Shown one piece after another: positions 12,830 through 56,644 of a DNA stretch of 64,000 nt. The stretch lies in contig JANCIK010000007.1 in the NCBI GenBank assembly GCA_028532985.1, positions 2,232,001 to 2,296,000 on the forward strand. The letters run 5' to 3'. The notes below the pieces were generated by a model. That model made no database searches. It was not told the DNA's origin and saw nothing but the letters and a program-made list of their open reading frames with translations. The stretch's first letter is position 1; each line of letters starts with the position of its first letter. Source of the DNA: Stropharia rugosoannulata. Lineage: Eukaryota > Basidiomycota > Agaricomycetes > Agaricales > Strophariaceae. The translations under genes and the position numbers were made by a program.

Positions 12830-13062
12830 TTATGAGTGATACGTCTTGGAATATAGCTCGGCCATGAGAAGTGTCACGCGAGGGCGCTTGTGGGACGTCG
12901 ATACCTCGTCTTGCGACCGTTGTGCGGCGTTTTCTGTCCATACCTTGCGCGGTTGAGTTATGGGGATAGATGTGAATAGTAAATAGCAAAGATAGTGTCC
13001 ATGCAACTCGCCTGTATCGTCTTTGCCCTTCCACCCAGTGTACCACCCGCCGTGGGGCCTCG
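12830..13062. repeat. Dispersed repeat, left module (second copy at 53,225-53,490)
   Basis: Shares long near-identical runs with 53,225-53,490, for example TAGCTCGGCCATGAGAAG followed by GTGTCACGCGAGGGCGCTTG. In the second copy this module is joined directly to the module seen here at 13,660, so the roughly 600 bp in between is missing there. Confidence 0.75.
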
Positions 13063-13659
13063 ACATCAACAGAAAATTCTCAAGAGTGGGCGTCAGCTTT
13101 AACATGACATGAGGGCGTTTGCGGGACGTCGATACTTCATCTTGAGCCATGCAGTCGTCATTCTCAGTTATGATTTGAGTGATTGAGCTAAGTAAGATGA
13201 AGGTGAGTTGTAATTTGGCTGGATGGCGGCTATATGACATACTTGTGTCATCTTAGCGCGTGCGCGCCGCTCCCCAACATCGTTTACCCCACCACCCTGT
13301 CCACCGCTCGCCACTGAACCTCAACCCTGGCCCCAGAGCCGCCGAAAATCGCTTTGAACGTCATGTATTCGATGATAAGCAGGCCATGATACGTGTTGCG
13401 CGAGAGCGTTTGCGAGACGGCGATACATCGTCTCGAGGCGCCAGCACGACGCTCACGCAGTGTTCTACATGTAATTGAACTAGAATAAGTGAAAATAGAG
13501 AGTAGACAGGGTTGGAGACGTACCTGATTCCTGGACTGTGCGACTCCACCTGAGGATAGCAGTTATGCGACTTACCTGTGTCGTCGCAGTTCGTGCGTGC
13601 TGCTCCTGCCTTGCCACGACATTTGCCCCTCAAGCTGGTGTACCACTCGGCGCGGGGTT

Positions 13660-15083
13660 TGAACATTGATCCAAGGGCAATGTATAATTTTCGTGAATGG
13701 TCTGCCTGTGAGGTGTAGTGCAAGGGCGTTATCGAGAAGTCAATACGTCGTATTGACGCATGAGTACGATGTTTCTAGTGTATCGGAAGTTAACTGGACG
13801 TCTACAAAGTAAGTGAAAATAGAAAAGTAATTGGGCGTGCAACATACCTGTGTCGCAGAATCACAGCTCTTCGCGGGACCTCGTCCTCTCTTCCCAGGCA
13901 CCGTGAATTGATGTAGCTAGAGTGATTGGCGGTATCGCGTTCACTGGGCGTCAATTTGTCGTCTCGCGACCTGAGAACGCTGCGTCCAAGGCACGTTCGG
14001 AGTGCAGGAGCACAGCTGAAAGCAGACGGGCAGATACGGTGGTGTAGTGAGGTCGTAACGCTAGGGCGCTCCTTATTGCCCACCTGGATCCGTTGTCTGT
14101 TTCTTACTCCACCGAGACGTGGCGCTCTCCGTGGTGTATACCTGTACCATTTGTCCGGTCTGCACATAGAGAGGTAAGTAAGCCATAGAAAACTAAGTAA
14201 GCGTTATAGTGTATATGGGTATCATGGACTTACTGTTCCTTCAGCCACGGCAATCCCTCCGTTGGCATGGGCGTGCGTTGGCTGCAGGGTGTTGAACTAG
14301 CAGGAGAGAGCCGTTTCAGACGTGTTCCATGGCCCAGTCACTATATCTTGCACTGTGTCGGGTGTCAGCGTTTTCAGGGCGTCAAAAAAACATAGTTTCA
14401 TGCTGCATGTCGTCCAAGTATGTCGAGGAGCGGCGTATATACGTCTAAGGAGGGACAGAGAGTCAGTACCAGACGTTAGGGTAAGAGAATACACGACGTA
14501 CCACGAGTTTATATGTCCAAGAAGGTATCGGGGCAGCATGAGGTGGCAGTAATAGAGGTGAAAGGGCAGTGCCGGTTAGTAAGTACGTAAAGTACCAGCC
14601 CCGGCATACTCCCTCACTCCGCACACGGCCAGGGACGCGCTCCCGAGCACCGGACCATTTCTCCGTCCCCTGGGTGTTCTCATTGCAGATATAAACATTC
14701 TATTCTTGTATCTCCATTTGGGAAACAACAAGACAGCCCAATATACCCGCATCCCCATTCCAAATGTTCTGCACAATAATGCAGAAATTACAGCTAGTCT
14801 ACCGGCTCACAGTATCACTGCTGACCATTACAGTACGGCTGGTACTCCGATGGCGGCAAGAAAAACGCTTGCAAACTAGCTTCAAGTTCACGAAGATTAT
14901 ATGGGGTGTACGCCCTAAATCCAGGCGTACATCCCGAAACTACACGCGAACGTAGATTCCCGTTAAAATTCCAGTAGTATGTGAACGCTCACAGGAGCCG
15001 AGGTTATGTCCGGGAGTATCTGCCATATGCATTTGGATGTACGTCTCTGTTGAAAATGCGTACACTCTCTTAGGCCAGGTGAA
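13660..15083. repeat. 1.4-kb dispersed repeat (copy 1; copy 2 at 53,500-54,888)
   Basis: Aligns by eye over its full length, same orientation, with 53,500-54,888; differences are scattered substitutions and small indels. Both copies end at the same place (CTCTTAGGCCAGGTGAA). No frame is conserved with convincing coding character, and there are no obvious terminal inverted repeats. The short GTAAGTG and CATACCTGTGTCGCAG segments inside look like splice sites of an eroded multi-exon sequence. Confidence 0.8.
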
Positions 15084-16903: not shown

Positions 16904-16906
16904 TTT
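16904..16906. other. Target-site duplication (TTT), left
   Basis: TTT directly before CACCCC; the same three bases follow the right end at 32,367-32,369. Confidence 0.75.
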
Positions 16907-17690
16907 CACCCCAGGAACATGAGGTTTTCAGGTGACCTGAAACTGTCGGAGAAACTTGGAGTTTTAATTAGAATATTAGCTGTACAGAAACTGGTAAATA
17001 AATAGTTAGTTTATACTTGAGATAAATAGAGAAAGAAGTTAAAAGATATAGATCGCCTTTAAGTATGTCTGAAAACATGAGAAAGATCTAAGGTTTTTCA
17101 CTTCCTGAAATGGGGAAATAAAATCGGAATATTACCTGAGAGAATACTCAATAGAAACTAAAAACTTAATGCTGACTGAAAACTTGATTGAAGTTTGAGT
17201 AATTGTTCATGATATTTCACGAGAACAGATCAAGGTTATTGTCCAAGTTTTTCACATGTCTGAATACATGTCCAAAACCCATAGTTTTTATTCTACTGAA
17301 ATTGGGTGTAGGATGGTCGTACGACGAGCGTACGCTGGACGACTATTGTCTAGTCGTCGGGTCGCTACACCCATCTATTGTTGTGCCGCTCCGCCACCCA
17401 TTAAAACAGTATTATTTCAACGTAAGTACATGCCGTAGGTCGTACAATGTCCGAACGCTGGAAGACTATTGTCTCGTCGTCGGGCTGCTACATCTCAAGG
17501 GTGGTCGGCGCCGCATGTTCTTCTCACGCACCTGTATCTGGCCCCGCCTGCGCTTGATGGACCCGAACAAGTAAAATGTAACCTTCTAATTGTTGTGCAC
17601 ATACCGTCCTAGCCGAGGGACGTGCCGGCGCTGTGCTCTTTTGGGTTGTGATGGCATGACGCACTGTCTGCCGCCCTCATCCCTATGGGT
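16907..17690 (+). repeat. Left 784-bp terminal inverted repeat
   Basis: Reverse complement of 31,583-32,366. It contains an odd-centred palindrome TTTCAGGTGACCTGAAA at 16,926-16,942 and several further CTGAAA/TTTCAG motifs, the kind of subterminal repeats to which CACTA transposases bind. A 123-codon open frame (17,203-17,574) is present in both arms, but it looks non-coding and I do not call it a gene. Confidence 0.92.
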
Positions 17691-17887
17691 ATTTAATGAG
17701 TGTTTGTCATTTTGATGTATCTCAGTGATATACAGTAGTCATATTGTGCATTAATCACCTTTCTCAGTCATCCGGCGCACATGCAGTTCTTTGAAACAGA
17801 CAATGCAGTCAATTTTACATCACCTATTCAAACACCTAAGCTCTATTACTTATATACGATCCACATGTTGCGAGAAGAATATATATA

Positions 17888-19332
17888 TCAATATCCTACA
17901 TAATGTTTGTTTTGCCATAAAAATGCGCCAGCCATAGCAACTATGCAAAGAAATATAAGGGTTTGTATCATTTCATTCAACATAGCCGGTTGCCTTTTGA
18001 CAGAAGCTTCCTTCGGCTTTGTTTCAACTATGGGAGCCTGCCTCACCACCACATTCTTTTGCCATATATCAATTGTACAACCTTCTCCATCGCCTCTGTA
18101 CATGGCCGCAAAAATAACTGGGCGCTCTGAATGGTCCATGACCTAGTACCTTTACATGAGCAAAGAAAGAGTGAGATATTAACAATACTTACTCCTAATG
18201 CCTGTACCTTGTTGGACTTCCCATTTTTCAGGCAATCGACAGTGACTCCAGAGCGTCGATCGTATATGTAAACACATCCATGATCACTTGTACTCAGGAT
18301 GTATTTGCAGTTATCGAGGAAGCTAACTTGACGTGGTCGCATGGCCACCTTCTTTGCGAGGACCGGGTAGACCCGAACACGTTCCCAGGAATCAAATCTG
18401 TACAGTGCAACCCCCTCATTCGGATCGTCAATGCAGAAGACGCCGCGCTTAATATTCGAAGCAACATTCCCACTATCGAAGGCTCAGAAATGCACTAGCA
18501 CATGAGAAGTTGTGTACTTACATCTTGCAACCCGTCTGTCTGGTACTGACAACCTTCCCATCCTTACCGCTAAGTGTATGACTGCGAATATGTGAGAATG
18601 ACACCGCTAAATATAGATATGCGCTTACATCTGACCGTCGTGAAGTCCAAATGTGCAAATTGCACTGTCATCGCCTTGCTGCACAAATGTTATCGCTTTG
18701 GGAATGTGGTCTTTGATGATTACGGAGAATATGGGGTGCAGGTCAAACTTAGCGCCAAGTCTAAAAAGCTGGACAACTGAGCTTCTGTTGGAGACGACCA
18801 CGCGATTGGATGTAGTATCAAAACATATTGCGGTAATTTCGCTGGGATTTGTCAGCTGTGCGCAATAGGACTCCTCATATCCCTAATATTATATTAATAG
18901 AGAGTATATGCATTGAGTGAAAATTCACAAACAGATATTCCTCCTGAGAACACCTCTTTCCAACATACAACCAGACCACGGGCAGTACCAAAGATTATGC
19001 CGTCGTCAGGCTCGTCTTCACGTCTGATCCAGGACAAAGCAGTGGTTGGCCCACGATCTCCAGCCCCGGACGGCCGGGTGAGCTGTGGCACGACCCATTT
19101 CTTCTTTATGTCTCGGTGTAATAACTTGCGCATATCCCAGACACGGGTTCCATCATAGCCTGAGAATATATCATGTTTGATTCAAGTTGAAAGATAGAGT
19201 AGGTTTCGTACCTCCAGATGCAAGCTTTCCATCTTCTGTGGCTGCGATGCAAAGTACAATGCCTTCGTGGCCTTCAATCTGCGCTTGCAGCGAGTATACA
19301 CTCTGGTCTGAATCGGCATGTGAGTCGTGCAT
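17888..19332 (-). CDS. WD40-repeat protein with C-terminal membrane anchor (transposon cargo)
   Basis: Starts at the ATG at 19332; exon 1 is 19,332-19,211 and exon 2 begins at 19,159, with further exons to the stop at 17,888. The start carries a WD40 blade: GHEGIVLCIAATEDGKLASGG joined across an intron to YDGTRVWDM. Further blades follow (GRR/GDRGPTTALSW, GIIFGTARGLVVCWK, then FVQQGDDSAICTFGLHDGQ and YILSTSDHGCVYIYDRRSG). The last exon ends in a single hydrophobic segment, MIQTLIFLCIVAMAGAFLW, followed by a short polar tail, so the protein is probably tail-anchored with its propeller in the cytoplasm. WD40 propellers are protein-binding scaffolds; the partner is unknown. From memory, WD40 proteins with this tail occur next to transposases in other Agaricomycetes. 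All exons read open. Confidence 0.72.
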
Positions 19333-19656
19333 GGTTAAAATAGAGAGTTGGTGGTGTAGCTAGAGTTGTGTTTGGATGTAAAAATCCAGCGATGTAATGT
19401 CCTATAAATATGTTCCTTCATAATAAGATCTTAGAAATGGCAACGCTTGTACGACTCGCACAATAACAGTCTTGTGTTCTATAAATAGAATTGCGTAAAA
19501 CAAGCATTAAACATGGCAATGTCGAAGAAACAAGGAATAAAGTACGTTGCCTGGTAAATCATGCTGTGTAGAGTAACATCTTTGTATTTTTCTTATTCTA
19601 ATGGAATCGTCAACCAGGGTCAGAGTTTGCAGTGTAGAGAATAAATAAGCTGTTCA

Positions 19657-20470
19657 ATGACACTCTGCAATGTATCTACAATGTCCTCGATTCCTATCGC
19701 CCCATTTGCCGAACCTCTTCCACCACCTGAACCTATAGCGGTACTTCTTGACCTGACTGACCTTCACAATCCATCTGTTCCGCCTCTCCTTGCTTTCGAA
19801 AATTTGCACGGAGATATTAGCTCTTCCGCAGTTTGCTTCACATCTCCAAACCGTCGGTTCTCTCCATACCTGCGTGGGCGCTCACAGATTGCCGAAGGAA
19901 AGCGCCGTGCTGCTTCCAGTCCTCGTAGCCTGTCGCCCGCATCCTCTCGTGACAGCAATACACCATCACGCAGCCCATCTCCGGCCAACAATACACGGGT
20001 TGGTAACATGCGAACAACCAGTGGTTCTTCACCGGGTGCAGGTCTTTCAAAGATGGTTCAAATTTTGATTGCTATTCCACAGCCCAAAAATGCTTCTCGC
20101 GCAAACTTGGAGGCACTGTTGGGTTGGGATGCGGATTTGTATCGTGATTTTAGAGTGAGTATTCTCTCAATAATCAGTAAACAGTTTATCACTAGTGTTA
20201 ATTTGTAGGGGTCAGTGTCTATTGGGTGCAAGCGGTTCCTAGACTCCTCGAAGTCGTACACGGCTCAAGACACGGAAAAACTTCAAAAATTAAGAACAGA
20301 GGTTAGTAAATTCACATCTGATTATCCTGGCTTAATGGATTAATGAAACACTTTAGATTCTTAATGACTTCCCCTCACTCAAACAGTATGAAAAGGCGTG
20401 GCCTTTGGAAGTCACAATTATTGCAGTGCTTAAGAGTAGTGCAGCGGCTGCAAAGAAGAAAACTGTATAA
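19657..20470 (+). CDS. Hypothetical Ser/Pro-rich protein with conserved C-terminal block (cargo)
   Basis: Three exons, 19,657-20,154, 20,209-20,301 and 20,357-20,470, are exactly in phase (498+93+114 nt) and give 234 residues. Introns are 54-55 nt with GT/AG ends. The first ATG is at 19657; a second in-frame ATG at 19681 could be the real start. The N-terminal 125 residues are Ser/Pro/Arg-rich and probably disordered. The C-terminal 110 residues look folded and contain LGWDADLYRDFR and YEKAWPLEVTI. I do not recognise a Pfam family, although I recall similar short proteins close to basidiomycete transposons. It is divergent from the WD40 gene (325 bp between starts), so a shared promoter is likely. 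Confidence 0.68.
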
Positions 20471-20629
20471 TTTGAATGTTTGTATATGTGCACCTGCGAG
20501 AAATGAATATCATTTTTTTGGAGTCCGTGTACAGATAAGCGCAATAAAATTTGAAGAGAATTTATACAATTTCCCTGTGCATGCACTTGTCATGTCCCAG
20601 GCATGTTACCTTACATAACCGGCTGGTAA

Positions 20630-20812
20630 AGCATTGAGTCTGCACAGAACGCGCATGCACTGCTTGGACGGCACATTAGCTGCAGAGTCTGCGCTTCATG
20701 ATACGCGGAGTCTGCGCAGCACGCGCCAGAGCACTGCTTGTACGGCATGTTAGCAGCGGAGTCTGCGCTCCATGCCCCAGAGCGTGCTGCATGTACAGCA
20801 CATTATCAGGGC
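20630..20812. repeat. Short GC-rich tandem repeat (GAGTCTGCGC... units)
   Basis: Units beginning (G)AGTCTGCGC/A with the phrase ACTGCTTG-ACGGCA(C/T)-TTAGC recur about three times at 50-75 bp spacing. They lie in the gap between cargo genes. The rest of 20,471-21,132 shows nothing else. Confidence 0.55.
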
Positions 20813-21132
20813 CATTATTTGGTCTCCATAATGACAATAGTCATTTAATTCCGATTTTTTTGTGTGGTGCTTCTGCCAACCCAGCTGTCTATAACGTACA
20901 CTATGTAGGTAGCTGAACAAAAGTGTATGCATTTGATGATTGCTTTTATTATGCATGTCCAAGCACTCTGTTGTCAGGTTAACCTTCCCGGCATCTAACC
21001 AAATCAGATCTTTTGTGTATAATTTCCATTAATACGACTCACAGGCATCCAACTAGCTCACAAGCGTCCAACTAGCTAATTTTCACAGCTTCACTCCATC
21101 AAATATCCCATCTTTCCGCTATATCCAATACC

Positions 21133-21709
21133 ATGGTTAACCAACGTCAATTCATCTCACCTATAAAGGTAAGCCTCGTGTGTACAACCTGATCATTGGT
21201 CTGATAAGCAATAGGCCCCATCACACAGAAGTTTGCGAGCACGACTATATGCTGCTGTCGAAGACTCACCAAAATCTGTAATGATTAACGCAAGGTGTTT
21301 CTCCGGCAACCCTCAGGAGACACGGTACCCATGCATGGAAGATGTTATTGACGGGGGATCATTTCAGCCACATACACATGACATATTTGTCCATGTGCGC
21401 CTTGGCTGTCGACAATCAGCAGTATTTCGTATATTTTTCAAACGGCACACCATGTTGCAGTACAACCGTCAGCTTGGCATATACGGCGACCTGGCAATCA
21501 TGAGAGTGGCAGCTAAAAATAGTAACTCCGTTGTCAATCTTCGGTCCTCAGATAATTGCAAGCTTGATTTCACATTGCATCATCAGTACGTAAACTATTT
21601 TTGTTCTCATAGTCCTAGGAGCTGACTTCTATTCAGTATTTTGCCCCTTATTCGTCGCTTCCAAGGCCCAAAGCGTACTAGAATTCCTCGCATTATATCC
21701 ATAAACTAA
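21133..21709 (+). CDS. Hypothetical protein of about 159 residues (cargo)
   Basis: Exons 21,133-21,168, 21,215-21,585 and 21,637-21,709 (36+371+73 nt) are in phase and end with TAA at 21,707-21,709. Introns are 46 and 51 nt with GT/AG ends. The protein begins MVNQRQFISPIK; the middle is mixed alpha/beta in character with IFVHVRLGC and FRIFFKRHT, and the last exon is basic (RRFQGPKRTR). I do not recognise it. The clean exon phases are the main support. Confidence 0.55.
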
Positions 21710-22730
21710 TACCATGTCTTCACACCTACTTTCTTGGCACAGCAGAGCTGGAGCTGATGTACTATAGTCAATAATAATTGGGAGATAGTTGTCTAATGAA
21801 TGTGTGATCATTCTCGGAGAAATGTCTAAATGGCAGTGAGTACACGTACTTGTAAGATTTTAACAAGACTGCCAATTAATGCATTCTGGGTGTATCTTGC
21901 GTTCCCTGCATACCTTTGTTGCGCAGGTAGTACGACGAGGTAAACATGAGGACAATGTGGCGTCAAATATATTAATAGAATGTGTTAATAACGATAACAT
22001 TTCGATCTGTCCATGTTGGCCGGAAGGATCTCGGCCTAGATATATAGAGTATGCTGTTCATTTGACAATTTTAAATGGTTCTTCTGATTTGGTTCTTGTG
22101 ACTAAGGTACATGTCGATACCCTGAGCACGCACCTAGACAAGGCGCGCTCAATGTATGCCATGTTGTATAACAAACCTATATGGGAACAGTGCATACCAT
22201 GAGTATTGGAGTCCGGCTAGCCAGGGTGCGCACCGCGGAATTCCGGTAGGAAAAACAATTGGAGGGAAAGTGGGTTAACGGAAAGCAAGTGAATACTATG
22301 CCCGGATCAGCACCGAGCGGAATGTGTGGACGGGCTGGGAATAATTCATAATTCGGACGGCGATATGTATTCTCCAATGCCCTATGCAAGCAAATATAAA
22401 GTAGCCAACCGAAATGCGCGTGTGTACATAATGAGGGTAGGCTTGGAGATCAAGGCCTGTGAGATGTGCTAAAGCCGGATGAGATGCATTAGGGATTAAT
22501 GCTGCCTGCCACATTTGGCACCATAAGAAGTAATAGAATCCCTTGTTTCAAGATGCGCCTCAATAATGTTGCAATGGAGTCATGGTATGTGAAGAACAAT
22601 AATAGCCTGAATTACGCTGACATCCCGGTGGAAAGGCAACATAGCAATGTAGAACAATTAACTTAGACTATTAGACTATAAATCTTGAAATACTCATGCA
22701 CATAGACACATCTAACTTTGTAGCCTCATC
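21710..22730. other. Intergenic cargo segment with one doubtful open frame
   Basis: A 107-codon ATG frame (21,879-22,202) encodes a hydrophilic then beta-like segment with CVNNDNISICPCWPEGSRP. It has no splice context or family match and could be a degenerate exon. 22,203-22,730 shows no coding signal; the next gene starts at 22,731. Confidence 0.3.
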
Positions 22731-25135
22731 ATGCAGTCCCCATATACCAATCCCGGTGATAACAGCACCTTCAATAGCACCAATGTCTGGGCAGCCCGCG
22801 ACGTTGATATGAACATGGATGAAGAAGATTTAGTTCAGACCTCTTTAACACATATTTTCTCCACTCCTTCGAGTCCCATGTCTGCACACTTCCTTCTTAC
22901 AGATGCGCCCAGGGAGACAGATCTGACAGATGTTATTATTCATGCTCCCAGCGAAGCATCCGGACGGCGCCAGTATGATGACACTGACACATTTGAATAT
23001 GAGGTAGGGCGCTCATTCTCTTAGTGCTATAAATAGACCCTCATTAATTGTGCAGATGTCACTGCGGCAAAAGCGCGTAGCCATCAGTGGTCCGAGTCAG
23101 CGTGTTCTTGACGATGTAGGTGCTATTTTTTCCGACGCCTGGTATCATGATTATAATTACAATGGTTGCTCAGTTACGCAAGCGTGAGGAAATCTCAAGG
23201 CATAGAGCTGTTGAGAATGTTGTACGGGTGCGCAATAGAGAAGCAGAGATAGAGCAGCTCCGTCAACAGCATAGTGATGCCCTTCGCCAACATACTCTGG
23301 ACCAAGAAGTGGAAAGTGAAATGGCAGAACAGATTCTTCAGTATGAGAGGGAGGTGACGGCTTTGCGTGCAGAAAGATCAGAGCTGGTAAGTTAAGAATC
23401 ATGTTAGTGCGAAAAATTTACTAATATTTACTGCAGGAAAGTATTCTCCGTAGGGGCGAAGAGCAATTCGCTGAATTGAGAGCCTCAAATGAGGAGATGG
23501 TGGGTAGAAACTATTTTTTATTCTGAATATTCGCTAATTACACTCTTAGAAAGATGCAATGAATAAAATGGCTGCGGAATACGCCCGAGAGAAGGTTAGT
23601 AATGTATGATACATTTATAACTCCCTACTAATGCAACTGCTCTTGATGTAGGAGAGACAAAACAATGAGATACTAGTGCTTCGTCAGCGTCAACAGCAGT
23701 CTACCCAGACACAGCATCAGTCAGCGCAGGATAATTTATCCATCCCCACAGCAGGACTGCACCCTCCTGGTTTATCTCGCCGTGGAGCTCGCACAAGTAT
23801 CGGAGTTGTGCCACTCAGACCAGTAAATTTTCGCCCTCCAGTTACCCTGCAGACTTCCAGAGATTCACCAATGTGTGAGTAATCTGATTCTCTCGTGTAA
23901 CCGAGGTTTTCAAGAACAGTGTCATAGTAAGCGCTACCAATGACCAAGGCAGTATTGCAGATATCAAAATCGTTGTACAGGAGGTTCTTAATCAACTGAA
24001 CGTTGCTAGTGTCTCTGTTGAAAGCCCTGGAACACCACGAAAGCGTCGATCTCCCCGTACCCGTAATCAGAGAGCCATAGCCGAGCAGAAGAAGAAGTTA
24101 TCAAAAGAGAATGACTTAGCTTGGAGGGTAAGTCTATTAATCACAATATACTTTGAATTGACTCAATCCCATACATGCAGGATACTGTTCGCAACACATG
24201 GAAATGCTACTACGATGTCACAGACTTAGCCGACTTTGCTTTCTACGAGCCTGCGTCCGAACACCAGGTTGATGCATTTGAAACAGGACAACATGGCCCG
24301 GATGACTCGAATAGGCTCTACTTCGGGAAGGGATATGAGAGATGCCGTTGGAACAAGGTCATTATTGATCGGCTGTATGCTAGACTATGCGCAGAACGCG
24401 ACACAGACGAAACATGGGGCATTCCAGATGTTCCTCGTGACTATCTCACGGCACTTTTTAACAGTCAACTCAAGCGCTCACGCGAAGCATGGAGACTGGT
24501 GCAGGCGCGCCCAGACTTTGCAAACCAGCGTGTAGAGACTTCTGAAGAGATTGTCGAGCGGGTGGAGCAGTACACTAATGCACGCTTGGCTGCTGTAGGA
24601 TCGCAATCACGTCGCGAACGTGTAAGTGTTTTTCTCAGAGGTGTATATCAGAACTAAATGTACTCTACCATAGAAATTTCAGCGACGAGTCAAGGCCGTT
24701 GACAGGGTCATATGCTTGAAGTCAGATGCGCCGGACTTGGAGACTTGGAAGTACTTCCGAGAGCTACTCAAGAAGCTCTCAGTTGATGGCATGTCGTCCG
24801 AAGAAGAGGGTGTAGCAAAACTGGGTAACCTTAATGTTCCAGTCTTTTGCGTAAAGCTCTGCACGTGGAGACATCCCATTATTCGCGACTACCTCAAGTA
24901 CATTGACGAAGAATCTCAGAACCCAGCTATCAGACCGAGCCGTGGGAGCAAGCTCCACCCTCGTATACTTATTGATACCCCGAGCTTGTCAGCTCCTCCG
25001 ACCAATCTTCCAGAGAGTCTCTACGACGAGAAGTGGTTAAAACAGGAGGAAGAAACGAAGGGGCGACAGTGGATTGAGGATGAATTATTGGTTTCTCGTG
25101 AAGTTTTTGAATTGCTGCAATTTGTTGCACAGTAA
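22731..25135 (+). CDS. Coiled-coil protein with conserved DGMSSEEE block (cargo)
   Basis: A gene of about nine exons from the ATG at 22,731 to the TAA at 25,133-25,135. Many very small exons (for example the one encoding KDAMNKMAAEYAREK near 23,550) are separated by introns of about 50 nt. Order of parts: an acidic Ser/Thr-rich N terminus, a long coiled coil (RHRAVENVVRVRNREAEIE through ERQNNEILVLRQRQQQ), a Pro/Arg-rich linker, a basic block (KRRSPRTRNQRAIAEQKKK), then a folded C-terminal half with WNKVIIDRLYARLC and a conserved-looking end: DLETWKYFRELLKKL followed by VDGMSSEEEG and CTWRHPIIRDYLKYID. From memory, the (D)GMSSDE/EE plus WRxxxIxxxLxxID arrangement recurs in many Agaricomycete proteins near transposons. 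Function is unknown; the basic block and coiled coil suggest a DNA-associated oligomer. Confidence 0.68.
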
Positions 25136-26880
25136 GTAGTCTTCGTGTATAATTGTCCTATAGCTTCTATTACCACATGTAACTATATTCTACATATACA
25201 TCTGCGGCCGGTCCCAGAGCTTCAGTGAAACCGTCATTCCTAAGGTGAAGCACATTGTCCTCTCGGAATAATCTACAACTTAGGCACATTAGCATTCCGC
25301 AATAATCTGCGGACTCATGCGCACTGCGCTGCTTGCCCATGTTCACACCATGGGCCCCTCGGCACCTCGCACCTCTTGCACAGTGGACGTGTGTTCGCTG
25401 TCTTGCTCGGCACCTCGTGTGGTGCGCCGTCTTCGGCCCCGGCACAACACATTCTCTGCAACCACAGCGCTCGTGACACCCCTGGACGCACATACACGCA
25501 CGCCATCATGAGCGTGCCACAGTGCGCCTCTGAGCTCTTTCCGTACATGATGCCGCGGCCGCCGTGTCATGGTGTGTGGATGCAGGACATTCCCATACTG
25601 CTATTACAGCAGGGGCTGGACGAGCGGCATTAGGCATCCTGTATATCTCCAAGATAGGTGTACACAACAGACCAGCGCATGCCCTCGTGCAGGGGCTTGT
25701 CAGCTACTTTGCGGACCCAGCGAAGCACCCGTCTCTGGCACGCAAAATAATGCAGCACATGTGGATGCATGTGTTTGCATACACACAGGCGCAATACCTA
25801 TTCAGAGGGTCCAAGCCTCAAGAAGGCACTGGGCAAACACGCAGCTGTGTGTGTGACAGTGGCGCGGCGCACTGGGCCGGGTTGGGCGAGAGTTAGCGGG
25901 GAAAGTGGGTTAGAGGTTCCCACGCTGCCTGGGTTCATAGCGCGGGAGGCGGCGCATGCGCTGTGAACGCAGGGTGGCCCACAAGCTTGGGTGCATGATC
26001 CCGTGGTTTGACAACAATCCCAAGTCGTTCCTGGACGAAATTGCACATATGGACAGCGAGACTATCTCGCTGCAGCCGAAGAAAGCACGGACAGCATGCG
26101 GGGAGGAGAGACAGGGCGTATGTTGGGCGAGCTGTGGCGTGTCGGTAGACGAGTTCTCGGAGCACATGGGGTTATGGCAGGAGTGTTGCGGGCGGCTCTT
26201 CTTCACAATTGTTGTGGTGGGGGGCAGTTCGGGCAGGTGGATTGTGACAACACTCCTTGAGGGAGTGAAGTTCTTGACGGCGGAGCGGGCAGCACATGCA
26301 ACGGAGACGCTGATCCTGTGGCTGTGCAGCATGGCGGCCCCGCCTGGAACCCAGTTGTTCAAGGCATCCATGCACAGTATGGTGTTTTGTTCATTCACAC
26401 TTTTGCCCAATTTCTTGTTCCCTTGTACTATTGCTTGTTCCCTTGTACTATTGCTTGTTCCCTTGTACTATTGCTTGTTCCCTTGTACTATCTTTGCTAT
26501 TTGTATTTACTATAGGACAAAAACACTTCCCACCATTGTCCCACTGGAGTTAATAAGTATAAGTAAAGTATAAAGAAATATGAATGCTGTGCCAGATTGA
26601 TGTTATGAAACAAAGACATGTGCTATAGGAACACATTTCCTACGTGGTGCCGCATATGCAACCACACATCCGCACATGTATATCACAAAAAGACGTCTTT
26701 GTCCTAAGATAGAACCACCAGAAATGGATGTATTAATATACACAAATTCGCTACAGAAACACAATGGTACGGTAACAGGATCTGGACACTTGAATATTAT
26801 GTTTGAATATAGAATTGAAAGAAAAAAAACATATATATACAGGATAGGACGAGGATATACTACACACAAACCGACCCCAA
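25136..26880. other. Gap between cargo and transposase; eroded coding-like sequence
   Basis: 25,560-26,400 is GC-richer than its surroundings and has overlapping open frames on both strands, typical of eroded coding DNA. No frame can be joined into a gene or matched to a family. 26,414-26,490 is a minisatellite, and 26,500-26,880 is AT-rich. Confidence 0.35.
26414..26490. repeat. 20-bp minisatellite, four copies
   Basis: Unit CTTGTTCCCTTGTACTATTG repeats without interruption; the last copy lacks three bases. Confidence 0.9.
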
Positions 26881-28286
26881 TGTCTCAGAGAGAATATGCC
26901 TACTTCTGTACATGTGTCGTCCATCCAAATGGACATTATGTCCGAAATGCCTTGTGTGTTGCTCATAATCTGGAAATTAGGAACTACACACAACATCAGG
27001 TAAGCCCACTTTCTCGTGAGCAATGTGGTTATACTTAAGTATAGACAGGCATCCTCAACCAATGTCCGTAATGACCCTCCACAGCTCACATCGCATATTA
27101 CAGCACCAGGATCGCCCGATCATCTCGACAGTGCAGTGTCTAACCTTGCAAACATTCTGGGATCAGCATCACTTGCTGATGATTATTCTGATGCACAATT
27201 CACGCGCCCAATGGCACAGGCAGTACCTATAAGTGCTGTGCAGTCCAGTGTGTACAGTCTCCTGGAGAGTTGATTTCACGAGATGCAGCCAGCATTTTCT
27301 CAAACACGCTTGGGCGATGCCACGGAAATTATCCCACGACAACTTACCGCGCATGCGAGGAAACATGACATAATGCTTGATGCCATCGAGAAGGACGTAC
27401 TGGAAATAAAGAATACATTACGTGGGCTTGCGCAAACATTCGATGGCTCTACCACTCAGCAAGAGCAACTGGACAATATAGCTGGGTGCATCCGTTCTGC
27501 TGGTATTTCTTTAGCAGAGCACATTACAAATCCAACGGAAGAAGCCGCCATCTGCAAAGACACACTCTTGAACTTACTCAAGCGTGCAGACTCCCAGGTT
27601 AGCCAGCTTGGCGCAATAACTTCCAAAGGTGGCCAGGGCGCAACTTCCCCACTTTACGTTGATTCAAGTAAGGTACTATATTTAGCTCACATGTTTTGTG
27701 TCTAATAATAGTCATAGGTCGTATTTTTCAGAATCCTGTTAGTACCCTTGATACAATTGCACAGGTCACCCTTCTTCTTGGGTCTATTGCTCATTTTGTA
27801 ATGGGATTAAGTGGGAAAGCATGCGACTTCATTATTTCTACTGTTGTAATGGTAATTCAATTGACCATGGCGACAAATCTTCCTACACGCGAAAATAGCT
27901 CATTTACAACAAGTCAGGAAATTATATTGGACCAACTACCAACAAGCCTACTCTCAGCCCTGAGTCAATTTGACCTCAGTTCTCCTACAACAATCTATGC
28001 TGTCTGTCCATCTTGCCATTATACCCACCAGTCAACATATGACCGGGTCACAACACAGGTGCATTACCCCGAGCACTGTAACAACATGATTGTAGAGCAA
28101 GACGGCCGACGTTTATGTGGGGAAAAACTACTCGAGCTACGCAATGGATCCCAACAGCCTTTGAAACCCTTTGTATCAGCATCACTTCAGGACTATATCT
28201 CGCGAATATTATCAGATCCCGAAATCGAGGCAATGTGCAAAAAGGCATGTGACAACGCCATGGCTACTGTAACAAACCCACCACAT

Positions 28287-29340
28287 CAGGAAAACCACTT
28301 TTTTGAAAAGAGACTTTTTGAGACATCTATGTGTCTCTTGGGAAATTTAGTGTCTTTTTGAGACATCAATATGTCTTTTGGTGAATTTTATGCCTTTTTT
28401 ATACTTTTAAAGGTCTCCTAGAGACTTTAGGGAAATATGTAATTCTTCCAATGTCTTTTTAGGTCTTTTTATGTCTTTTAAAGTCTTTCAATTTTTTTAA
28501 GTATTTAAATGTATTGATGTAATTGTATAAATCTTTCTATGTCTCTAAAAGATTTTAAAAATGTCTCATAAAGTGTATTAAAAAGCTACAAAAAGACTCA
28601 AAAAGACATTTAAAGACATAAGAAACTAGGAAAAAATTGACTTATGAATAGCTATTGTCAACTATTACTTGTAATCTACATTGTAGGTCTTATATAAAAT
28701 ACATCTGAACATGACTAAATTCAATGACTTGTGATGTAACAAATTAATGTAGTCTAGAGCATTATCATCATATTTGACCTGCAGTGAGTCTATATACAAA
28801 GGCACATGGTGTAGGGGAAAGTATGCTGGTTTTAAGTCATGCATGAAGCTGTTGGTTCAATTCCTGGCAAATGCAAATTATTTCCACAACATAAGTTCCC
28901 CTTCTCATTGTACCCAAGTTAATGTGATGGTTTATTTGCCATTGTATGTCTATGTAATGTGCTGACTAATATAGTTACTTCATGACAAATCTTAAGTACA
29001 TTTAAATATACCTAATTACCTACTTACAAATACAAATACACTTACTAATACAATCTAATCTATGTAGTAGTGATTTGGCTAAGATGAGGTCATGTTTTTA
29101 ATGTTTTTATAAAGCAAAAATGTAACATTAAAAGACATTTAGAGACATCTAGAGACATTATGGACACATAAAAAGACAAAAAAGAGACTCCAAGAGACAT
29201 AAAAAAGTCTTTAAAAGTTTGATACCTGGAGACTTTGCTTTAAAAGTCTCCTAGAGACCCAGGTCTCCTGGGGTCTTTTTAAGTCTTTTTAAGTCTTTTC
29301 AAAAAATTAAAAGACTTTTTTCAAAAAAGTCTTTTTCCTG
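28287..29340. mobile_element. 1,054-bp AT-rich TIR element inserted in the transposase
   Basis: The ends are inverted repeats: CAGGAAAA-x2-ACTTTTTTGAAAA at the left and its reverse complement at the right, ending CCTG at 29,340. AT flanks both sides (28,285-28,286 and 29,341-29,342). Removing the element and one AT joins the transposase frames exactly (TNPPH to AANTNSIWD). The inner flanks are rich in AAGTCTTTT/AGAGACAT-type words in opposite orientations, making long imperfect inverted arms. No coding capacity is seen. It is a MITE-like non-autonomous element; its superfamily is unclear because a 2-bp AT duplication is unusual. Confidence 0.85.
28800..28875 (+). ncRNA. tRNA-like Pol III promoter (box A and box B) in the MITE core
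   Basis: TGGTGTAGGGG at 28,807-28,817 fits the box A consensus TRGYNNARNNG. GGTTCAATTCC at 28,854-28,864 fits box B (GGTTCGANTCC) at 10 of 11 positions. The 36 bp between them is the normal spacing. The acceptor and T-arm stems do not pair well, so this is not a working tRNA; it looks like a tRNA-derived SINE head or a decayed tRNA. Transcription is inferred only. Confidence 0.5.
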
Positions 29341-31582
29341 ATGCAGCCAACACAAACTCCATTTGGGACTCATCTTTCATGCGCTCTTTCCCAGGACCTA
29401 TCAATAACCAGCTGTTCATTGACCGGGGCAGTAGTGTACGGTTGGCTTTCTCTATGCACGTTGATTTCTTCAATCCAAAGACAACTCGACAGGCGGCGCA
29501 TCAAAGTCTGGGAATCATCACATTGGCTTTATTAAATCTCCCAGAAAATCTTCGGTATTCACCCGAGTTTATATTTCCTGTTGGAATTATTCCCGGACCC
29601 CGGGAGCCATTGCTGGATCAAATAAATCATTATATTCGTCCTGTTATTGAAGAAATGAAGGTTGGGTGGACGAGGGGCTATCACATCTCCAACACATCTG
29701 ATTCTCCGGTCTCTGGTGAACTAGTGAATACAGCACTTATTCTCTCAGTGAATGACCTACCTGCCGCGCGCAAAGTCTCTGGAATGGCAGGAACTAACTC
29801 GCATTTTTACTGTACAGTTTGCCAGTGTTATGATCAAGCGACCATGTATAATACTGACTTCAACTCCTGGCGTTATCGTGATGTTTCTCATCTGCGAAAA
29901 TGGGCCAAGGCTTGGCGTGATGCAGACACTCTTCAAAAAAGGGCTCAAATTGAAAAAGACCATGGTATTCGCTGGTCCGAACTCTGGAACCTGCCATATT
30001 GGAATCCGACACAGATGCTGGTTATCGATAGCATGCACTGTATCCTTGAAGGCCTCATTCACTATCACTGCCGCTACGTGCTTTGTTTGGATTCAAAAGA
30101 GGCTAAAGTAGTTGATCGAACTGGGGCATTCTCTTATCCGTGGACGGCTTACATTGATAACAAAAATCCACAATATTGTGATTTTAGTCGAAGGGACCAG
30201 AAGCAAATATTGGCCATCCACAACTTGCTAGAACGACCGTTTGGACAGATCCCCGACCTACTCGATACAGCAAAGCTTCGAAGGGGATTAATGGCAAAGA
30301 ACAAAAATGCATTGCTTTTTGTATCAGACGACCTTGACCTTCTCGAGAAACACGGGGAACATGTTGTGGCAACCACAAAGGAGCAGTTAGCAGACAGACT
30401 AATCGAATGGGTACGCTTTGTTTCTAATTTTATTGTGGATTTCCTTCAGCTAACAGACATATTAGAGACTCGACCTTCCATTAGTTTCAGATACACGTAC
30501 CCCGAAAACTTGTGATATGGAGACATTGACACATATTCAACATGTCATAAAGTCCACAGACACTCCATCTTGGATTCATTCAGTTCCACATAACTACGGA
30601 GAGGCATCAGCGGGAATAATTAAAGCTGGGGAATGGCGCATCTTAAGTACTGTTTATCTTCCAATTGCACTAACCACATTATGGGGGGACAAAGCTTTTG
30701 AGCAACAATCCCATTTCCTTCAAATACTCGACCATTCTATGGCCCTTTTTGAGGCAGTCACATTGCTTGTCAGAAATACTATGAGCGATGCAAGAGCAAA
30801 ACAATACTGTTTGCTCATCAAGGAGTGGGTGACCAATCTACATACCCTCCATCCTCACACCTTGGCCCACCGAAAACGACCCAATGTTCACGCCGCCTTT
30901 CATTTATATGAGTTTCTGGTTTTGTTCAGCCCTGTTATGTCCTGGTGGACTTTTCCATTTGAAAGGCTGATTGGAGTACTTCAAAGAATAAAAACAAATG
31001 ATAAAATTGGAGGTATGTCTGTTTTTGGAAGTTATTCTGTAAACAGTACCAGCTCACGCCGTCAATCTAGGGCCTATGGAACAGACTATATTTCAAACTT
31101 ATGGTCAAGGAGCGAATCTGCGTCGATGGTTACGCAGGCCCGACTGCCCGGAGGTCATAAAACAGTTCAAATTTCTGTTTGACAAAGCATTTTCGACCGA
31201 AGCCCATGCACCATCGAAAAGAACCAATGATGCAAGTCGTCTTCCAGTCGAAGTGGCACACTACAGGCACAATGGAATAAATTACTCGAGGGCAAGTACA
31301 CACATTGGCAATAGCTTGATTCTATACTACCTATACATTTAAGGATCGGGCGGTTGTGCTAAACTTGTCGCGGGTACGTATTGATATCAATCCGATCAGT
31401 ACCAAATTTGATGAGTGATTATAGGTCTAAAGTGAATGACATAGTACTTGTAAATGCATGTATGTTTTAACTGCTAAAATACAATATGTTATATTTTGCG
31501 TGCAGGGAATACTTACAAAGTGCCATGGAAGGCTGAGACATTACATTACTGAAATAAAATAAATGACAGATGTCTATCAAAC

Positions 31583-32366
31583 ACCCATAGGGATGAGGGC
31601 AGCAGACAGTGCGTCATGCCATCACAACCCAAAAGAGCACAGCGCCGGCACGTCCCTCGGCTAGGACGGTATGTGCACAACAATTAGAAGGTTACATTTT
31701 ACTTGTTCGGGTCCATCAAGCGCAGGCGGGGCCAGATACAGGTGCGTGAGAAGAACATGCGGCGCCGACCACCCTTGAGATGTAGCAGCCCGACGACGAG
31801 ACAATAGTCTTCCAGCGTTCGGACATTGTACGACCTACGGCATGTACTTACGTTGAAATAATACTGTTTTAATGGGTGGCGGAGCGGCACAACAATAGAT
31901 GGGTGTAGCGACCCGACGACTAGACAATAGTCGTCCAGCGTACGCTCGTCGTACGACCATCCTACACCCAATTTCAGTAGAATAAAAACTATGGGTTTTG
32001 GACATGTATTCAGACATGTGAAAAACTTGGACAATAACCTTGATCTGTTCTCGTGAAATATCATGAACAATTACTCAAACTTCAATCAAGTTTTCAGTCA
32101 GCATTAAGTTTTTAGTTTCTATTGAGTATTCTCTCAGGTAATATTCCGATTTTATTTCCCCATTTCAGGAAGTGAAAAACCTTAGATCTTTCTCATGTTT
32201 TCAGACATACTTAAAGGCGATCTATATCTTTTAACTTCTTTCTCTATTTATCTCAAGTATAAACTAACTATTTATTTACCAGTTTCTGTACAGCTAATAT
32301 TCTAATTAAAACTCCAAGTTTCTCCGACAGTTTCAGGTCACCTGAAAACCTCATGTTCCTGGGGTG
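31583..32366 (-). repeat. Right 784-bp terminal inverted repeat
   Basis: Reverse complement of 16,907-17,690, identical by eye except about one base near the inner edge. The near-identity of such long arms implies recent transposition or gene conversion. Confidence 0.92.
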
Positions 32367-32369
32367 TTT
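32367..32369. other. Target-site duplication (TTT), right
   Basis: TTT directly after GGGGTG; pairs with 16,904-16,906. Confidence 0.75.
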
Positions 32370-33014: not shown

Positions 33015-33054
33015 ATTCATTTCGGGCACAGTAAAAAGGCAGTGTGGAGGTAAG

Positions 33055-34330
33055 TGTGCAGCAGTGGGGCAGTGTAAGGTCAGTGTCGGTCAGTGCAAGG
33101 TCAGTGTTAGTCAGTGTAGGTCAGTGTGTGGCGGTGCAAAGGTAAGTGTGTGGCAGTGCAAAGGTAAGTGTTTAAGTCAGTGTACAGGTAATACAGCCAG
33201 TGCGAGGACAACATAGTACGGCATAATTTAGAGTATGCTAAGACATATTGGTTGAGTCAAAATACATGTAGAATAGATTGCTATACAACATGTAAATGGT
33301 TGTAACTCAAATGATGTACATGTAGATGTTCAAGCGTTCAAGGCTCATGTCTACTTTCTTGGACGAGGTCGGGGCCTTGGAATGTTTCTCGGAGCTTCAA
33401 AGGGTTTAGTGGGTTTTTTTACACAGTCTGGACCGTGCTGAATGAGTGTAAATCAAGCTCTCGGGTCTGAGTTAAGTAATTTTAAACATACCATAAGCTC
33501 ATCCTCATCCTCGTTGTCGTCCCCGTGATTGCTGTTCTCCGGAATGCCTTTGTATTGCCACCAAAACTGATGATCACCTGCATCAAGTTCCCACTGATAG
33601 TAACCCGCAAGCCCTGCACGCGCAGACAAGAGTCTGTCAATATTGAAAGTGCTGTATGAAAGAATCTGTGTGAATGCAAGCTCAGTTGTATGGTCAACAA
33701 CTGTTTATTTGCGTAGCTAGCTGTGAAAATACGAGCTACGTACATAAGAAATATGAGTACAATGTAACAGAAAATCATAGTGAGGATATACCTCAGTTAT
33801 ATGGTCAACAATTGAGGTGCTTGAAGTCAAGAAATACGAACTATATACCTTCGTCGAAGCTACAAGATGCAATAAGTAAAATGCAAGTGTCTGAGTAATA
33901 CAAGAAATTAAAGCATAAGTGAAGGCCTGTGAAATACAGCCCTCGTGTACTTGTGATGCATGACCGCCGCACAACAGCAGCGCTCGTGAACCGAAATATA
34001 CATATCTCCACACTGTACATTTGGTATAATTTCCGTACATGTCCAAATACGGCAAGTGTTGGTCTATGTTGGTTGGTAGAGGTCAGTGAAGGCCAGGATG
34101 AGGTCCGTGTGGGTCAGTGAAGGTCAGTGTGAGGTCAGTGTGGGTCAGTGTGAAGTTGGTACAAGTCAGTGTAGGTCAGTGTGTTGTCAGTGTGGGTCAG
34201 TGCAGGTCAGTGTAGGTCAGTGTGGGGTCAGTGTAGGTACGTGTAGGTCAGTGTAGGGTCAGTGCAGGTCAGTGTAGGTCAGTGTGCGGTCAGTGTTGGT
34301 CAGTGTTGGTCAGTGTGGGTCACTGACCAG
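33055..34330 (+). repeat. GGTCAGTGT minisatellite arrays of copy A
   Basis: Degenerate units of 9-11 bp, GGTCAGTG(T/C)(A/G/N), in two blocks (33,055-33,180 and 34,075-34,330) separated by unique sequence. The same arrays appear as CACTGACC at 40,710-41,000 and 41,450-41,570 in copy B. Confidence 0.85.
33380..33640 (-). pseudogene. 3' exon remnant inside copy A
   Basis: Read leftward, 33,640-33,490 encodes an open segment with GYYQWELDAGDHQFWWQYKG and an acidic run (DDNEDEDEL), followed by a GTATGT donor. A possible last exon, basic and proline-rich, ends at a TAG near 33,355. It looks like the end of a protein otherwise deleted, perhaps the transposase of the full-length element. I do not recognise the family. 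Confidence 0.35.
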
Positions 34331-34901
34331 TGACAATAAGTGTGAGGTCTGTGATTCTGATGTATAGTTATGCCGAAAGTATGTAGTTACTACACTATTC
34401 TTGGTATGCCGCACGCATACAGTTTGCTACACACAGACTCGGCATTGATTATTGATTGAATAAACCCATGGTGTATTACTTTTGCTTGAACATAAAAGCC
34501 GTATGCGGCTTTATAAACATCTATAATACATATGAAATATAGTAAGTCTAATGTATTTCTCATATATACATTTACTGGCTGTATTCTAACACAACCCGTT
34601 CATCCTGCATCACACAGATGTATAGCCGACTTAACATGGCAATCGGCATGGAAGCCGTAGTTGCGTTTTTGATCAACACTGCCCAGCAGTAATGAACGGC
34701 AAGGCAATGCCGTGTCTCACCGTGGTCCAAGCCATGTCCGTGCCGATGAAGCATGTTTTACGGTAAGAAAAGCTGTGCAAAGGTCAGTGTGAGGTCAGTG
34801 TGGCTTGGCAGTAAGTCAGTGTGTTTTGATACACTGACCATGCACTGACCCACTGACCACACTGACCGACACACTGCCTTTTCTATTTGCCCATTCATTT
34901 C

Positions 34902-35272
34902 GAGCCGCCTCTGGAACCTGCTCACTCGCCCTGCAACTATGCGCGCACTATGCATATGTTGCTCCTGCTCCTGCCTTACCATGGCAGTCCAGCCCCCTGC
35001 TAGGCTGCTACGCCGCCACGCCGCCTTGTGTTGACGTTGTGTGTTACGTGTTTACCTACTTGATTCTCCTCCGTCGTGGTCACAGGTCCGCTCGACAATT
35101 TCCCTGGTAGAAATTAGACGGCGCATCCCGGAGAGCTATACATGCGGATATAGACGGCATGGTGGACGTGGACACGGACGGAGCGGACGGCGGAAAAGGC
35201 ATGGCACCAAAACGGAAAAGGCGGGCGCGAAGATGGGGCATATGCAGTGGGGCCAGGCAGCAGCGCACGGGG
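34902..35272. repeat. Middle fragment of a dispersed repeat cut by two insertions
   Basis: Similar to 52,612-52,740 (GGAACC-TGC, CGCCCTGCAAC, GGGGCATATGC-GTGGGGCCA blocks). The same repeat continues after the retrotransposon at 42,748. Confidence 0.65.
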
Positions 35273-35277
35273 GGTAA

Positions 35278-35679
35278 TGTGACGAAAGCGATCTCAAAGA
35301 GAGCGAAGCCGACTCCAAGACGGTTTCGGCACACGGTTCTGAAGTCAATGGGTATGGGAGTTTGTGCAGCGAGGTGTGAACGGGGTCAAAACGTATCTTA
35401 TTGACCTATTCAAAATACAGAACAATTTATACTACGATAATGAGTCATCTTTGAACTGTCCAGAAAATAAGAGAATGGTAAAGAATAATGTAGAATAGGG
35501 TAGAATATGAAAAGGCTATGTACCGAGTGCGAGCACAGGCTAGTTAGAAAAAGAACAATAAGAAAGACAACTTGACATAAGTACAAAGTTATATAATGTT
35601 CGGCTTATTACAGCCTTTCGAGTGTGCGTCCGTTTCTCTCGCATTGTGTCCATTTCGTTCACGTAGCTGGGTTGTCACA
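35278..35679 (-). repeat. 3' LTR (402 bp)
   Basis: TGTGACGAAAGC to GTTGTCACA. The bases just inside it (35,680-35,700) read on the minus strand as CCGCCAGGAGGGCGTA, a modest purine-rich tract for plus-strand priming. Confidence 0.92.
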
Positions 35680-35718
35680 TACGCCCTCCTGGCGGTATGC
35701 AATAGCGCCAAAGTCAAA

Positions 35719-36683: not shown

Positions 36684-36788
36684 GTAGGAGTAGAATAGAG
36701 TTCAAAAATCAAAGTGTTGTGAGGAACAGTAGGTAGCAACGTTGTGAGGTTTATGGGGGTGGTGTATAGAATAGAGTAGGTGCGGTTT

Positions 36789-56360: not shown

Positions 56361-56644
56361 ACTGGCATTCAGCGCAGAGCTACTGAGTACATGTACGGAA
56401 GTAATATATTATGTCACATTACATGTATGGCACTAGAATTACCCACAGACTCCTAACGGAAATATGCCGAAATTACCTTGAAGCCTAGCCGCTTTACATC
56501 TGCTCCAGAAAAGGTATATACACCTTCTTCTGTAACAGCAAATCTGCTATATCGGAGATGTATCTTCTGTGGACCAAAGTTCCCAAAATAACGAGATACA
56601 GTGAGGGGTTTTATATCTGTGAACCGTGTTTTGATAGGGTAATG

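What the first reader, a model, noticed from the sequence alone, without database searches (positions are those of the whole stretch)
16907..32366. A 15.5-kb cargo-carrying CACTA/Plavaka-type transposon with 784-bp, almost identical arms
Both ends (CACCCC...), the 3-bp TTT duplication and the constant pairing sum of 49,273 across 784 bp are seen directly. Fungal CACTA/Plavaka elements usually have short TIRs and carry little besides the transposase; here several multi-exon genes (WD40/TM, coiled-coil DGMSSEEE, two or more others) lie inside clean ends. The near-identity of the arms implies a recent move. This is the strongest candidate for an undescribed element class: a giant TIR element moving a gene set.
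Basis: partly seen in the sequence, partly recalled or inferred. Interest (0 to 1): 0.88.

Follow-up and report, generated by a model that had tools for sequence, protein, structure and literature searches.

The report
Five-gene mushroom CACTA transposon, long arms
This is a large cut-and-paste jumping gene of a mushroom that carries its own set of five conserved genes, one of them coding for a membrane-anchored protein, and its two long matching ends look as if they are kept alike by copying rather than by a recent jump.

Summary
The element at 16,907-32,366 is real: CACCCC...GGGGTG ends, a TTT duplication, 784-bp arms with one mismatch, and two paralogous empty sites on the same contig that read through a single TTT. 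It belongs to the EnSpm/CACTA superfamily (Transposase_21 transposase, CAC..GTG ends, 3-bp duplications), not Plavaka. The genes inside do not look like host cargo. All five modules (tail-anchored WD40 protein, small proteins G3 and G4, coiled-coil DGMSSEEE protein, transposase) occur together in this genome only in four elements of one lineage, and homologues of three share contigs in other Agaricales. All four long members and one 1.7-kb derivative carry 11-bp-spaced repeats locked about 400 bp from both ends. Long identical arms do not mark a recent move: the truly recent pair (C4/C8, 99.9% alike) has short, 77%-identical arms, while the window copy has an in-frame stop and a 1,060-bp PlavakaB-like insert in its transposase gene. 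Arms are alike within elements and mostly unlike between them, also in palindromic short derivatives, so arm copying is the likeliest cause. I call it a new variant of a known kind. Its most unusual part is a membrane-anchored WD40 protein kept inside a DNA transposon.

The parts
16907..32366 (.). whole element, 15,460 bp, CACCCC...GGGGTG
   Evidence: two paralogous empty sites
16904..16906 (.). TTT target-site duplication, left copy
   Evidence: single TTT at both empty sites
32367..32369 (.). TTT target-site duplication, right copy
16907..17690 (+). left arm, 784 bp (1 mismatch to right arm); outer 33-107 bp shared by other elements
31583..32366 (-). right arm, 784 bp
17282..17338 (+). subterminal box (376-432 from the left end) with 11-bp-spaced motif [TG][CT]GTA[CG]GA at 400 and 411
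31935..31991 (-). subterminal box at the same distance from the right end
17888..19332 (-). WD40 propeller protein with C-terminal membrane anchor, 6 exons, 398 aa, open by hand-made model
19681..20470 (+). gene G3, about 226 aa, found in the four related elements, no Pfam match
21133..21709 (+). gene G4, about 159 aa, 3 exons, beta-rich fold predicted for its homologue P0022; 54 homologues, the named ones from Agaricomycetes
22731..25135 (+). DGMSSEEE gene, 9 exons, 659 aa, open by hand-made model; long coiled coil predicted for its homologue P0019
26880..31342 (+). Tnp2/Transposase_21 gene (multi-exon; 3' limit approximate), broken in this copy
27271..27273 (+). in-frame TGA in the transposase gene where the C12 copy reads a sense codon
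28284..29343 (.). 1,060-bp non-autonomous PlavakaB-like insert inside the transposase gene (CATCAGG...CCTGATG, CA duplication); 40 long matches scored in the genome of 141 candidates, this one included, 35 of them full length
   Evidence: end rule from PMC12730594

Best explanation
A copy of a large EnSpm/CACTA-superfamily DNA transposon of an Agaricales fungus. Shown: exact ends, 3-bp duplications, two empty sites, a Tnp2 transposase gene, and four further genes tied to this transposon lineage. Inferred: the Tnp2 DDE transposase cuts at CACCCC/GGGGTG and joins into 3-bp staggered targets. The outer terminal repeat plus the 11-bp-spaced array locked at 400-425 bp form a bipartite end, probably bound by transposase or by one of the element's other proteins (DGMSSEEE, G3 or G4), as TnpA does in plant CACTA elements (recalled). 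The WD40 protein holds some step at a membrane, probably the nuclear envelope or ER. Long identical arms arise when one end is copied over the other (gene conversion, or inverted strand switching in gap repair after excision); the same process would make the palindromic short derivatives. The window copy is probably no longer autonomous, because its transposase gene carries a stop and an insert; other copies could still move it in trans.
For: Two paralogous empty sites with a single TTT. 3-bp duplications in 4 of 4 long elements and 16 of 19 short ones. Transposase_21 E 2.3e-11 in the window copy and in the C4 copy, above the curated cut-off. All five modules 4 of 4 in C7, C12, C4, C8. Purifying selection on accessory exons: 0.18-0.34 nonsynonymous against 0.66-0.89 synonymous differences per site, nine comparisons. 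Same-contig homologues: WD40 + DGMSSEEE + G4 and WD40 + DGMSSEEE in Agrocybe, WD40 + G4 in Mycena (inferred from equal contig length). Motif about 400 and 411 bp from both ends in 4 of 4 long elements and in L042. Arms alike within elements. C4/C8 pair 99.9% alike with short 77% arms.
Against: No transcript, protein or movement data. DNA of the homologous elements in other species could not be read, so their ends are untested. A degenerate tail beyond the 784-bp arm, expected after conversion of an older longer repeat, is not significant (in register 336 of 5,000 shuffles reach it), so conversion and de novo inverted duplication are not separated. Among the nine near-identical 816-bp copies the within-element excess is small, with one tie and one reversal. 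Arms could look a little more identical than they are through assembly polishing. Not every close relative is whole: C8's transposase matches in two frames with a TGA and its G3 has a TGA, and C11:1901836-1902324 is a 61% transposase fragment with four stops near which no accessory gene was seen in the 9.9 kb read. A weak DGMSSEEE relative at C6:732823 (33%) lies about 20 kb from another Tnp2 gene, so that gene may not be exclusive to this lineage.
Confidence: 0.82

Rival explanations
1. A cargo-carrying transposon: a small CACTA element that captured several host genes and moves them.
For: The element is 15.5 kb and encodes a WD40 protein, a domain common in host proteins.
Against: WD40, G3 and G4 match this genome only in the same four elements; DGMSSEEE has one further weak match. 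The genes are diverged between elements (37-71% aa) as the transposase is (57-66%), show purifying selection, and homologues of three of them share contigs in other genera.
Confidence: 0.08
2. A recently inserted active element whose identical arms record the date of insertion.
For: 1 mismatch in 784 bp; open gene models for DGMSSEEE and WD40.
Against: The transposase gene has an in-frame stop and a nested 1,060-bp insert. The recent pair C4/C8 has divergent arms. TIRs are not resynthesised at insertion (established knowledge of cut-and-paste transposition).
Confidence: 0.1
3. The long arms arose by one de novo inverted duplication of one end per element (inverted strand switching in gap repair), without later gene conversion.
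For: C12 arms end abruptly with no sign of a tail; precedent in Galileo copies whose extended arms have taken in transposase sequence (PMC4168063, passages).
Against: Five short derivatives that differ from every other element by 19-46% still have arms 92.6-100% alike, in two of them (L034, L037) near-perfect only over the outer 240-270 bp; this favours repeated homogenisation but does not prove it.
Confidence: 0.35
4. A Plavaka element, as the first reader half proposed.
For: Plavaka transposases resemble EnSpm ones (PMC12730594).
Against: Ends are CAC..GTG with 3-bp duplications, not TGT..ACA or CATCA..TGATG. Pfam Transposase_21 was the only match of the C4 transposase frame at E up to 5; that Pfam holds a Plavaka model is recalled.
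Confidence: 0.03

Closest known systems
EnSpm/CACTA transposons of fungi (e.g. CNIRT6 of Cryptococcus; passages of PMC12810828)
   Same: CACTA-superfamily transposase, CAC ends, 3-bp duplications
   Different: CNIRT6 is about 7.5 kb with 24-bp TIRs; here 14.5-15.5 kb, five conserved genes, arms up to 1,218 bp, and repeats locked 400 bp from the ends
Enlarged EnSpm families of the red alga Chondrus crispus (16-20 kb, 4-5 ORFs; one passage in PMC6431247; original paper not read)
   Same: Size and ORF number
   Different: Whether any of their ORFs are related was not tested; no WD40 protein is mentioned in the passage read
Plavaka A/B transposons (passages of PMC12730594)
   Same: Same CMC-type transposase clade
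   Different: Different ends and duplication sizes; PlavakaB fits the 1,060-bp insert, not the host element
Galileo (passages of PMC4168063) and Tetris (passages of PMC4079207) foldback-like elements of Drosophila
   Same: Copies with long, near-identical arms (Galileo e.g. 959 bp, 99.9%) and outer ends more conserved than the rest; for Tetris the authors name unequal crossing-over and gene conversion as possible homogenisers of arm repeats
   Different: Galileo is of the P superfamily with 7-bp duplications; no such accessory gene set is mentioned in the passages read
Starship giant elements of fungi (recalled; listings only)
   Same: Large fungal elements with several genes
   Different: As recalled they use a tyrosine recombinase and lack such TIRs; here a DDE transposase and TIRs

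Membership tests
EnSpm/CACTA | Tnp2 / Transposase_21 transposase | tested here: met
   PF02992 E 2.3e-11, 43.7 bits against cut-off 28.6; C4 copy 43.8 bits
EnSpm/CACTA | 5'-CAC..GTG-3' ends | tested here: met
   CACCCC..GGGGTG in C7 and C12, CACTCC..GGAGTG in C4/C8
EnSpm/CACTA | 3-bp target-site duplication | tested here: met
   4 of 4 long, 16 of 19 short elements; single TTT at both empty sites
[quoted passage not shown]
   Seen by eye only: CTVC in the ORF 29283-30515, HAAFH and FPFER in the ORF 30466-31182; motif definition from PMC12730594. Catalytic residues were not aligned to a reference
EnSpm/CACTA | Subterminal repeats bound by a TnpA-like protein (recalled from plant elements) | tested here: inconclusive
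   Repeats present at 400-425 bp from both ends; binding untested
Plavaka | TGT..ACA or CATCA..TGATG ends | tested here: not met
   CACCCC..GGGGTG; rule from PMC12730594
Plavaka | Plavaka-type transposase by model or tree | tested here: inconclusive
   Only Transposase_21 was listed for the C4 frame at E up to 5; no tree was made
PlavakaB (for the insert 28284-29343) | CATCA..TGATG ends with 2- or 3-bp duplication | tested here: met
   CATCAGG..CCTGATG, CA duplication here and CC at the C13 copy; no transposase was found in it, so membership rests on ends
Starship-like giant element | Tyrosine recombinase captain gene (recalled) | not tested
   No such match appeared among the ORFs scanned, but not every ORF was scanned

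The most novel reading that the evidence does not exclude
A lineage of EnSpm transposons spread through Agaricales has made four extra genes part of its core, including a tail-anchored WD40 propeller, so that its movement or survival includes a membrane-bound step (for example tethering the transpososome at the nuclear envelope, or capturing a host silencing or ubiquitin factor there), and it keeps its ends paired in identity by systematic arm copying that also spawns palindromic derivatives.
Probability: 0.3. Interest if true: 0.75.

Novelty: new variant of a known kind. Interest (0 to 1): 0.5.

Why it matters
DNA transposons are usually thought to need one or two nuclear proteins. A lineage that keeps five genes, one coding for a membrane-anchored propeller, would point to an unknown step in eukaryotic cut-and-paste transposition or in its escape from silencing, and gives defined proteins and DNA sites to test. 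It also warns against dating DNA transposons from the identity of their inverted repeats: of the long elements here, the freshest insertions have the least similar arms.

Tried and rejected

Rows dropped: one search compared 14 of the 19 short elements plus C7 and C12; L039, L043, L044, L045 and L046 were left out (120-145 bp, or only a 68-bp repeat). Of the 80 matches, 22 are to transposase; the other 58 are to the end of the 1,060-bp insert, which the query carried at its start. Alignment A3 used 46 of 54 hits plus the window exon. In one search the C4 stretch of G4 and the C12 stretch of the transposase included 2 and 1 stop codons, which were skipped; by the translations the G4 ones lie past the exon end.
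Full report
WHAT IS THERE. The window is G000:C7:2232001-2296000 of a 48-Mb genome in 20 contigs. The nearest named homologues of its proteins come from Agaricales, so the host is taken to be an agaric. The element runs from 16,907 to 32,366 (15,460 bp), with CACCCC/GGGGTG ends and TTT on both sides. The arms form an ungapped 806-bp inverted repeat with 9 mismatches, only 1 of them in the first 784 bp.

EMPTY SITES. The 60+60 bp flanks, joined with one TTT, matched two other places on the same contig over their full length (93% and 91%). Alignment of about 700 bp shows both reading through GGCCC-TTT-GTGCCC with a single TTT (620 of 754 and 587 of 820 aligned columns identical). These are paralogous, not allelic, empty sites, but they fix the ends to the base.

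THE FAMILY. A pattern of the first 31 bp has 42 hits (22 and 20 on the two strands, up to 3 mismatches) and none for the reversed control. Nineteen short elements (120-1,711 bp) with two such ends were read; 16 of 19 have identical 3-bp flanks, L036, L039 and L045 do not. A second long element, C12:1726836-1741319 (14,484 bp, ATT/ATT), has 1,218-bp arms without a mismatch. Two more with related genes, C4:3651577-3666707 (15,131 bp, AAG/AAG) and C8:1256656-1271778 (15,123 bp, TAG/TAG), are one element in two places: 99.9% identical, 3 mismatches and 11 gap openings over 15,144 columns, the alignment ending within 2 and 8 bp of the CACTCC/GGAGTG ends. Their arms are only about 104 bp long and 77% identical.

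THE GENES. Tnp2 transposase: PF02992, E 2.3e-11, and likewise in the C4 copy. DGMSSEEE gene: 9 exons, 659 aa, open in this copy. WD40 gene: 6 exons on the minus strand, 398 aa, with WD40 matches (PF00400 E 4.7e-9) and a C-terminal hydrophobic helix. G3 is about 226 aa and G4 about 159 aa. Gene models are hand-made from GT-AG sites and relatives; there are no transcripts. All five modules are found in C7, C12, C4 and C8. Searched with one exon each, WD40, G3 and G4 have only these four matches in the genome. DGMSSEEE has a fifth, weak one (33%, C6:732823), about 20 kb from another Tnp2 gene. The transposase has in addition a 61% fragment with four stops at C11:1901836 and 16 more distant relatives (12 at 33-39%, 4 at 25-31%). 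C8's transposase matches in two frames with a TGA, and its G3 has a TGA. Gene order differs: in C12 the DGMSSEEE gene lies on the other side in the other orientation. Coding comparisons of nine accessory exon pairs show purifying selection (nonsynonymous 0.18-0.34, synonymous 0.66-0.89 differences per site; synonymous sites saturated in 8 of 9).

OTHER SPECIES. WD40: 18 proteins (Agrocybe 5, Hypsizygus 2, Collybia 1, Tephrocybe 1, Mycena 9). Of the 18, 12 have a C-terminal stretch with mean hydropathy of 1.5 or more; of the six without, five are 273-317 aa and probably truncated or partial, and one (P0008, 474 aa) lacks it. The last exons of the C12 and C4 copies also carry such a stretch by eye. 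DGMSSEEE: 3 proteins, with only the 7,994 candidates sharing most words scored. G4: 54 proteins, the named ones from Agaricales and Boletales (orders recalled). Linkage, inferred from equal contig length and species: Agrocybe 73,686 bp (WD40 P0001, DGMSSEEE P0019, G4 P0022), Agrocybe 25,293 bp (WD40 P0003, DGMSSEEE P0021), Mycena alexandri 605,605 bp (WD40 P0013, G4 P0040; a long contig, so weaker). A Hypholoma protein model (P0020) runs a G4-like start into the DGMSSEEE protein, the same order as in the window.

THE ENDS. Between the outer repeat (48 bp shared by C7 and C12, 104 bp between the two ends of C4) and the genes, the arms of different long elements are unrelated apart from one box at 376-432 bp from the end and a few short matches. 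The 816-bp derivatives share a further weak stretch (C7 arm 260-321, 71-75%). Within the box the motif [TG][CT]GTA[CG]GA, written after seeing these ends, recurs every 11 bp: at 400 and 411 from both ends in C7; 401, 412, 423 and 453 at both ends of C12; 401, 412, 423 and 400, 411, 422 at the two different ends of C4 and C8; 403, 414, 425 and 446 at both ends of the 1,711-bp L042. The elements also hold a few other matches (for example four internal ones in C7, and some on the opposite strand near the ends), and the remaining 48.5 kb of the window holds three on each strand. Six other short elements tested do not clearly have the box. The fixed distance over otherwise unalignable sequence argues for constraint on spacing, hence a protein-DNA assembly at the ends. 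That is inference.

WHY THE ARMS ARE ALIKE. Over the first 340 bp, arms within an element are 92.6-100% identical in 16 of 16 elements compared. For C7, C12, L042, L036, L038, L034 and L037 the best match to any other element is only 54-81%. For the nine near-identical 816-bp copies the difference is small (within is higher in 7, tied in 1, lower in 1). The 816-bp derivatives are almost complete palindromes with a short spacer. If arms simply diverged after an old duplication, they should be no more alike than copies are. In the seven divergent elements they are much more alike, so one end is being copied onto the other, repeatedly or independently in each element. I cannot separate gene conversion from inverted gap repair: the weak similarity beyond 784 bp is not significant. 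Identical arms therefore do not date the insertion. The freshest long elements, C4/C8, have the least similar arms, and the window copy, with near-identical arms, carries an in-frame TGA (27,271-27,273) and a 1,060-bp insert in its transposase gene. The insert has CATCAGG/CCTGATG ends and a CA duplication and belongs to a high-copy family: 40 long matches scored of 141 candidates, the window copy included, the others 92-98% identical to it. By the end rules in PMC12730594 (passages) it is PlavakaB-like.

KNOWN OR NEW. The superfamily is EnSpm/CACTA. Enlarged EnSpm elements with 4-5 ORFs are reported from Chondrus (PMC6431247, one passage), long near-identical arms from Galileo (PMC4168063, passages), and possible homogenisation of arm repeats from Tetris (PMC4079207, passages). 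What I did not find in print, within the ten searches listed in Tried and rejected, is a fungal CACTA lineage with this gene set or a transposon-encoded membrane-anchored WD40 protein. Hence: new variant of a known kind.

Noticed in passing
window 33024-41589: A second large inverted-repeat structure close to the element: arms 33024-33217/41396-41589 (98%), 34298-34893/40147-40742 (94%) and others, containing a GGTCAGTGTA-type minisatellite.
   Followed up: no
window 12811-14910 and 53221-54712: Segments duplicated about 40 kb apart at 86-93% identity; similar pairs at 44201-45506 and 56431-58961, 84-89%.
   Followed up: no
[quoted passage not shown] the Hypholoma model P0020 also runs into an odd low-complexity tail after the same gene.
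   Followed up: partly
G000 C6:732823 and C6:753077: A weak DGMSSEEE relative (33%) lies about 20 kb from a 35%-identical Tnp2 gene: possibly a larger, older element of a sister lineage; no inverted repeat was found between the two 9.9-kb pieces held, and the 15 kb between them was not read.
   Followed up: partly
L036, L038, L042 and the 814-817-bp copies L028-L035, L037, L040, L041: Largely palindromic short elements, 13 of these 14 with identical 3-bp flanks (L036 without); if transcribed they would form long hairpins, a possible source of silencing RNA.
   Followed up: partly
window 28284-29343: Member of a high-copy 1,060-bp PlavakaB-like non-autonomous family (40 long matches scored of 141 candidates).
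   Followed up: yes
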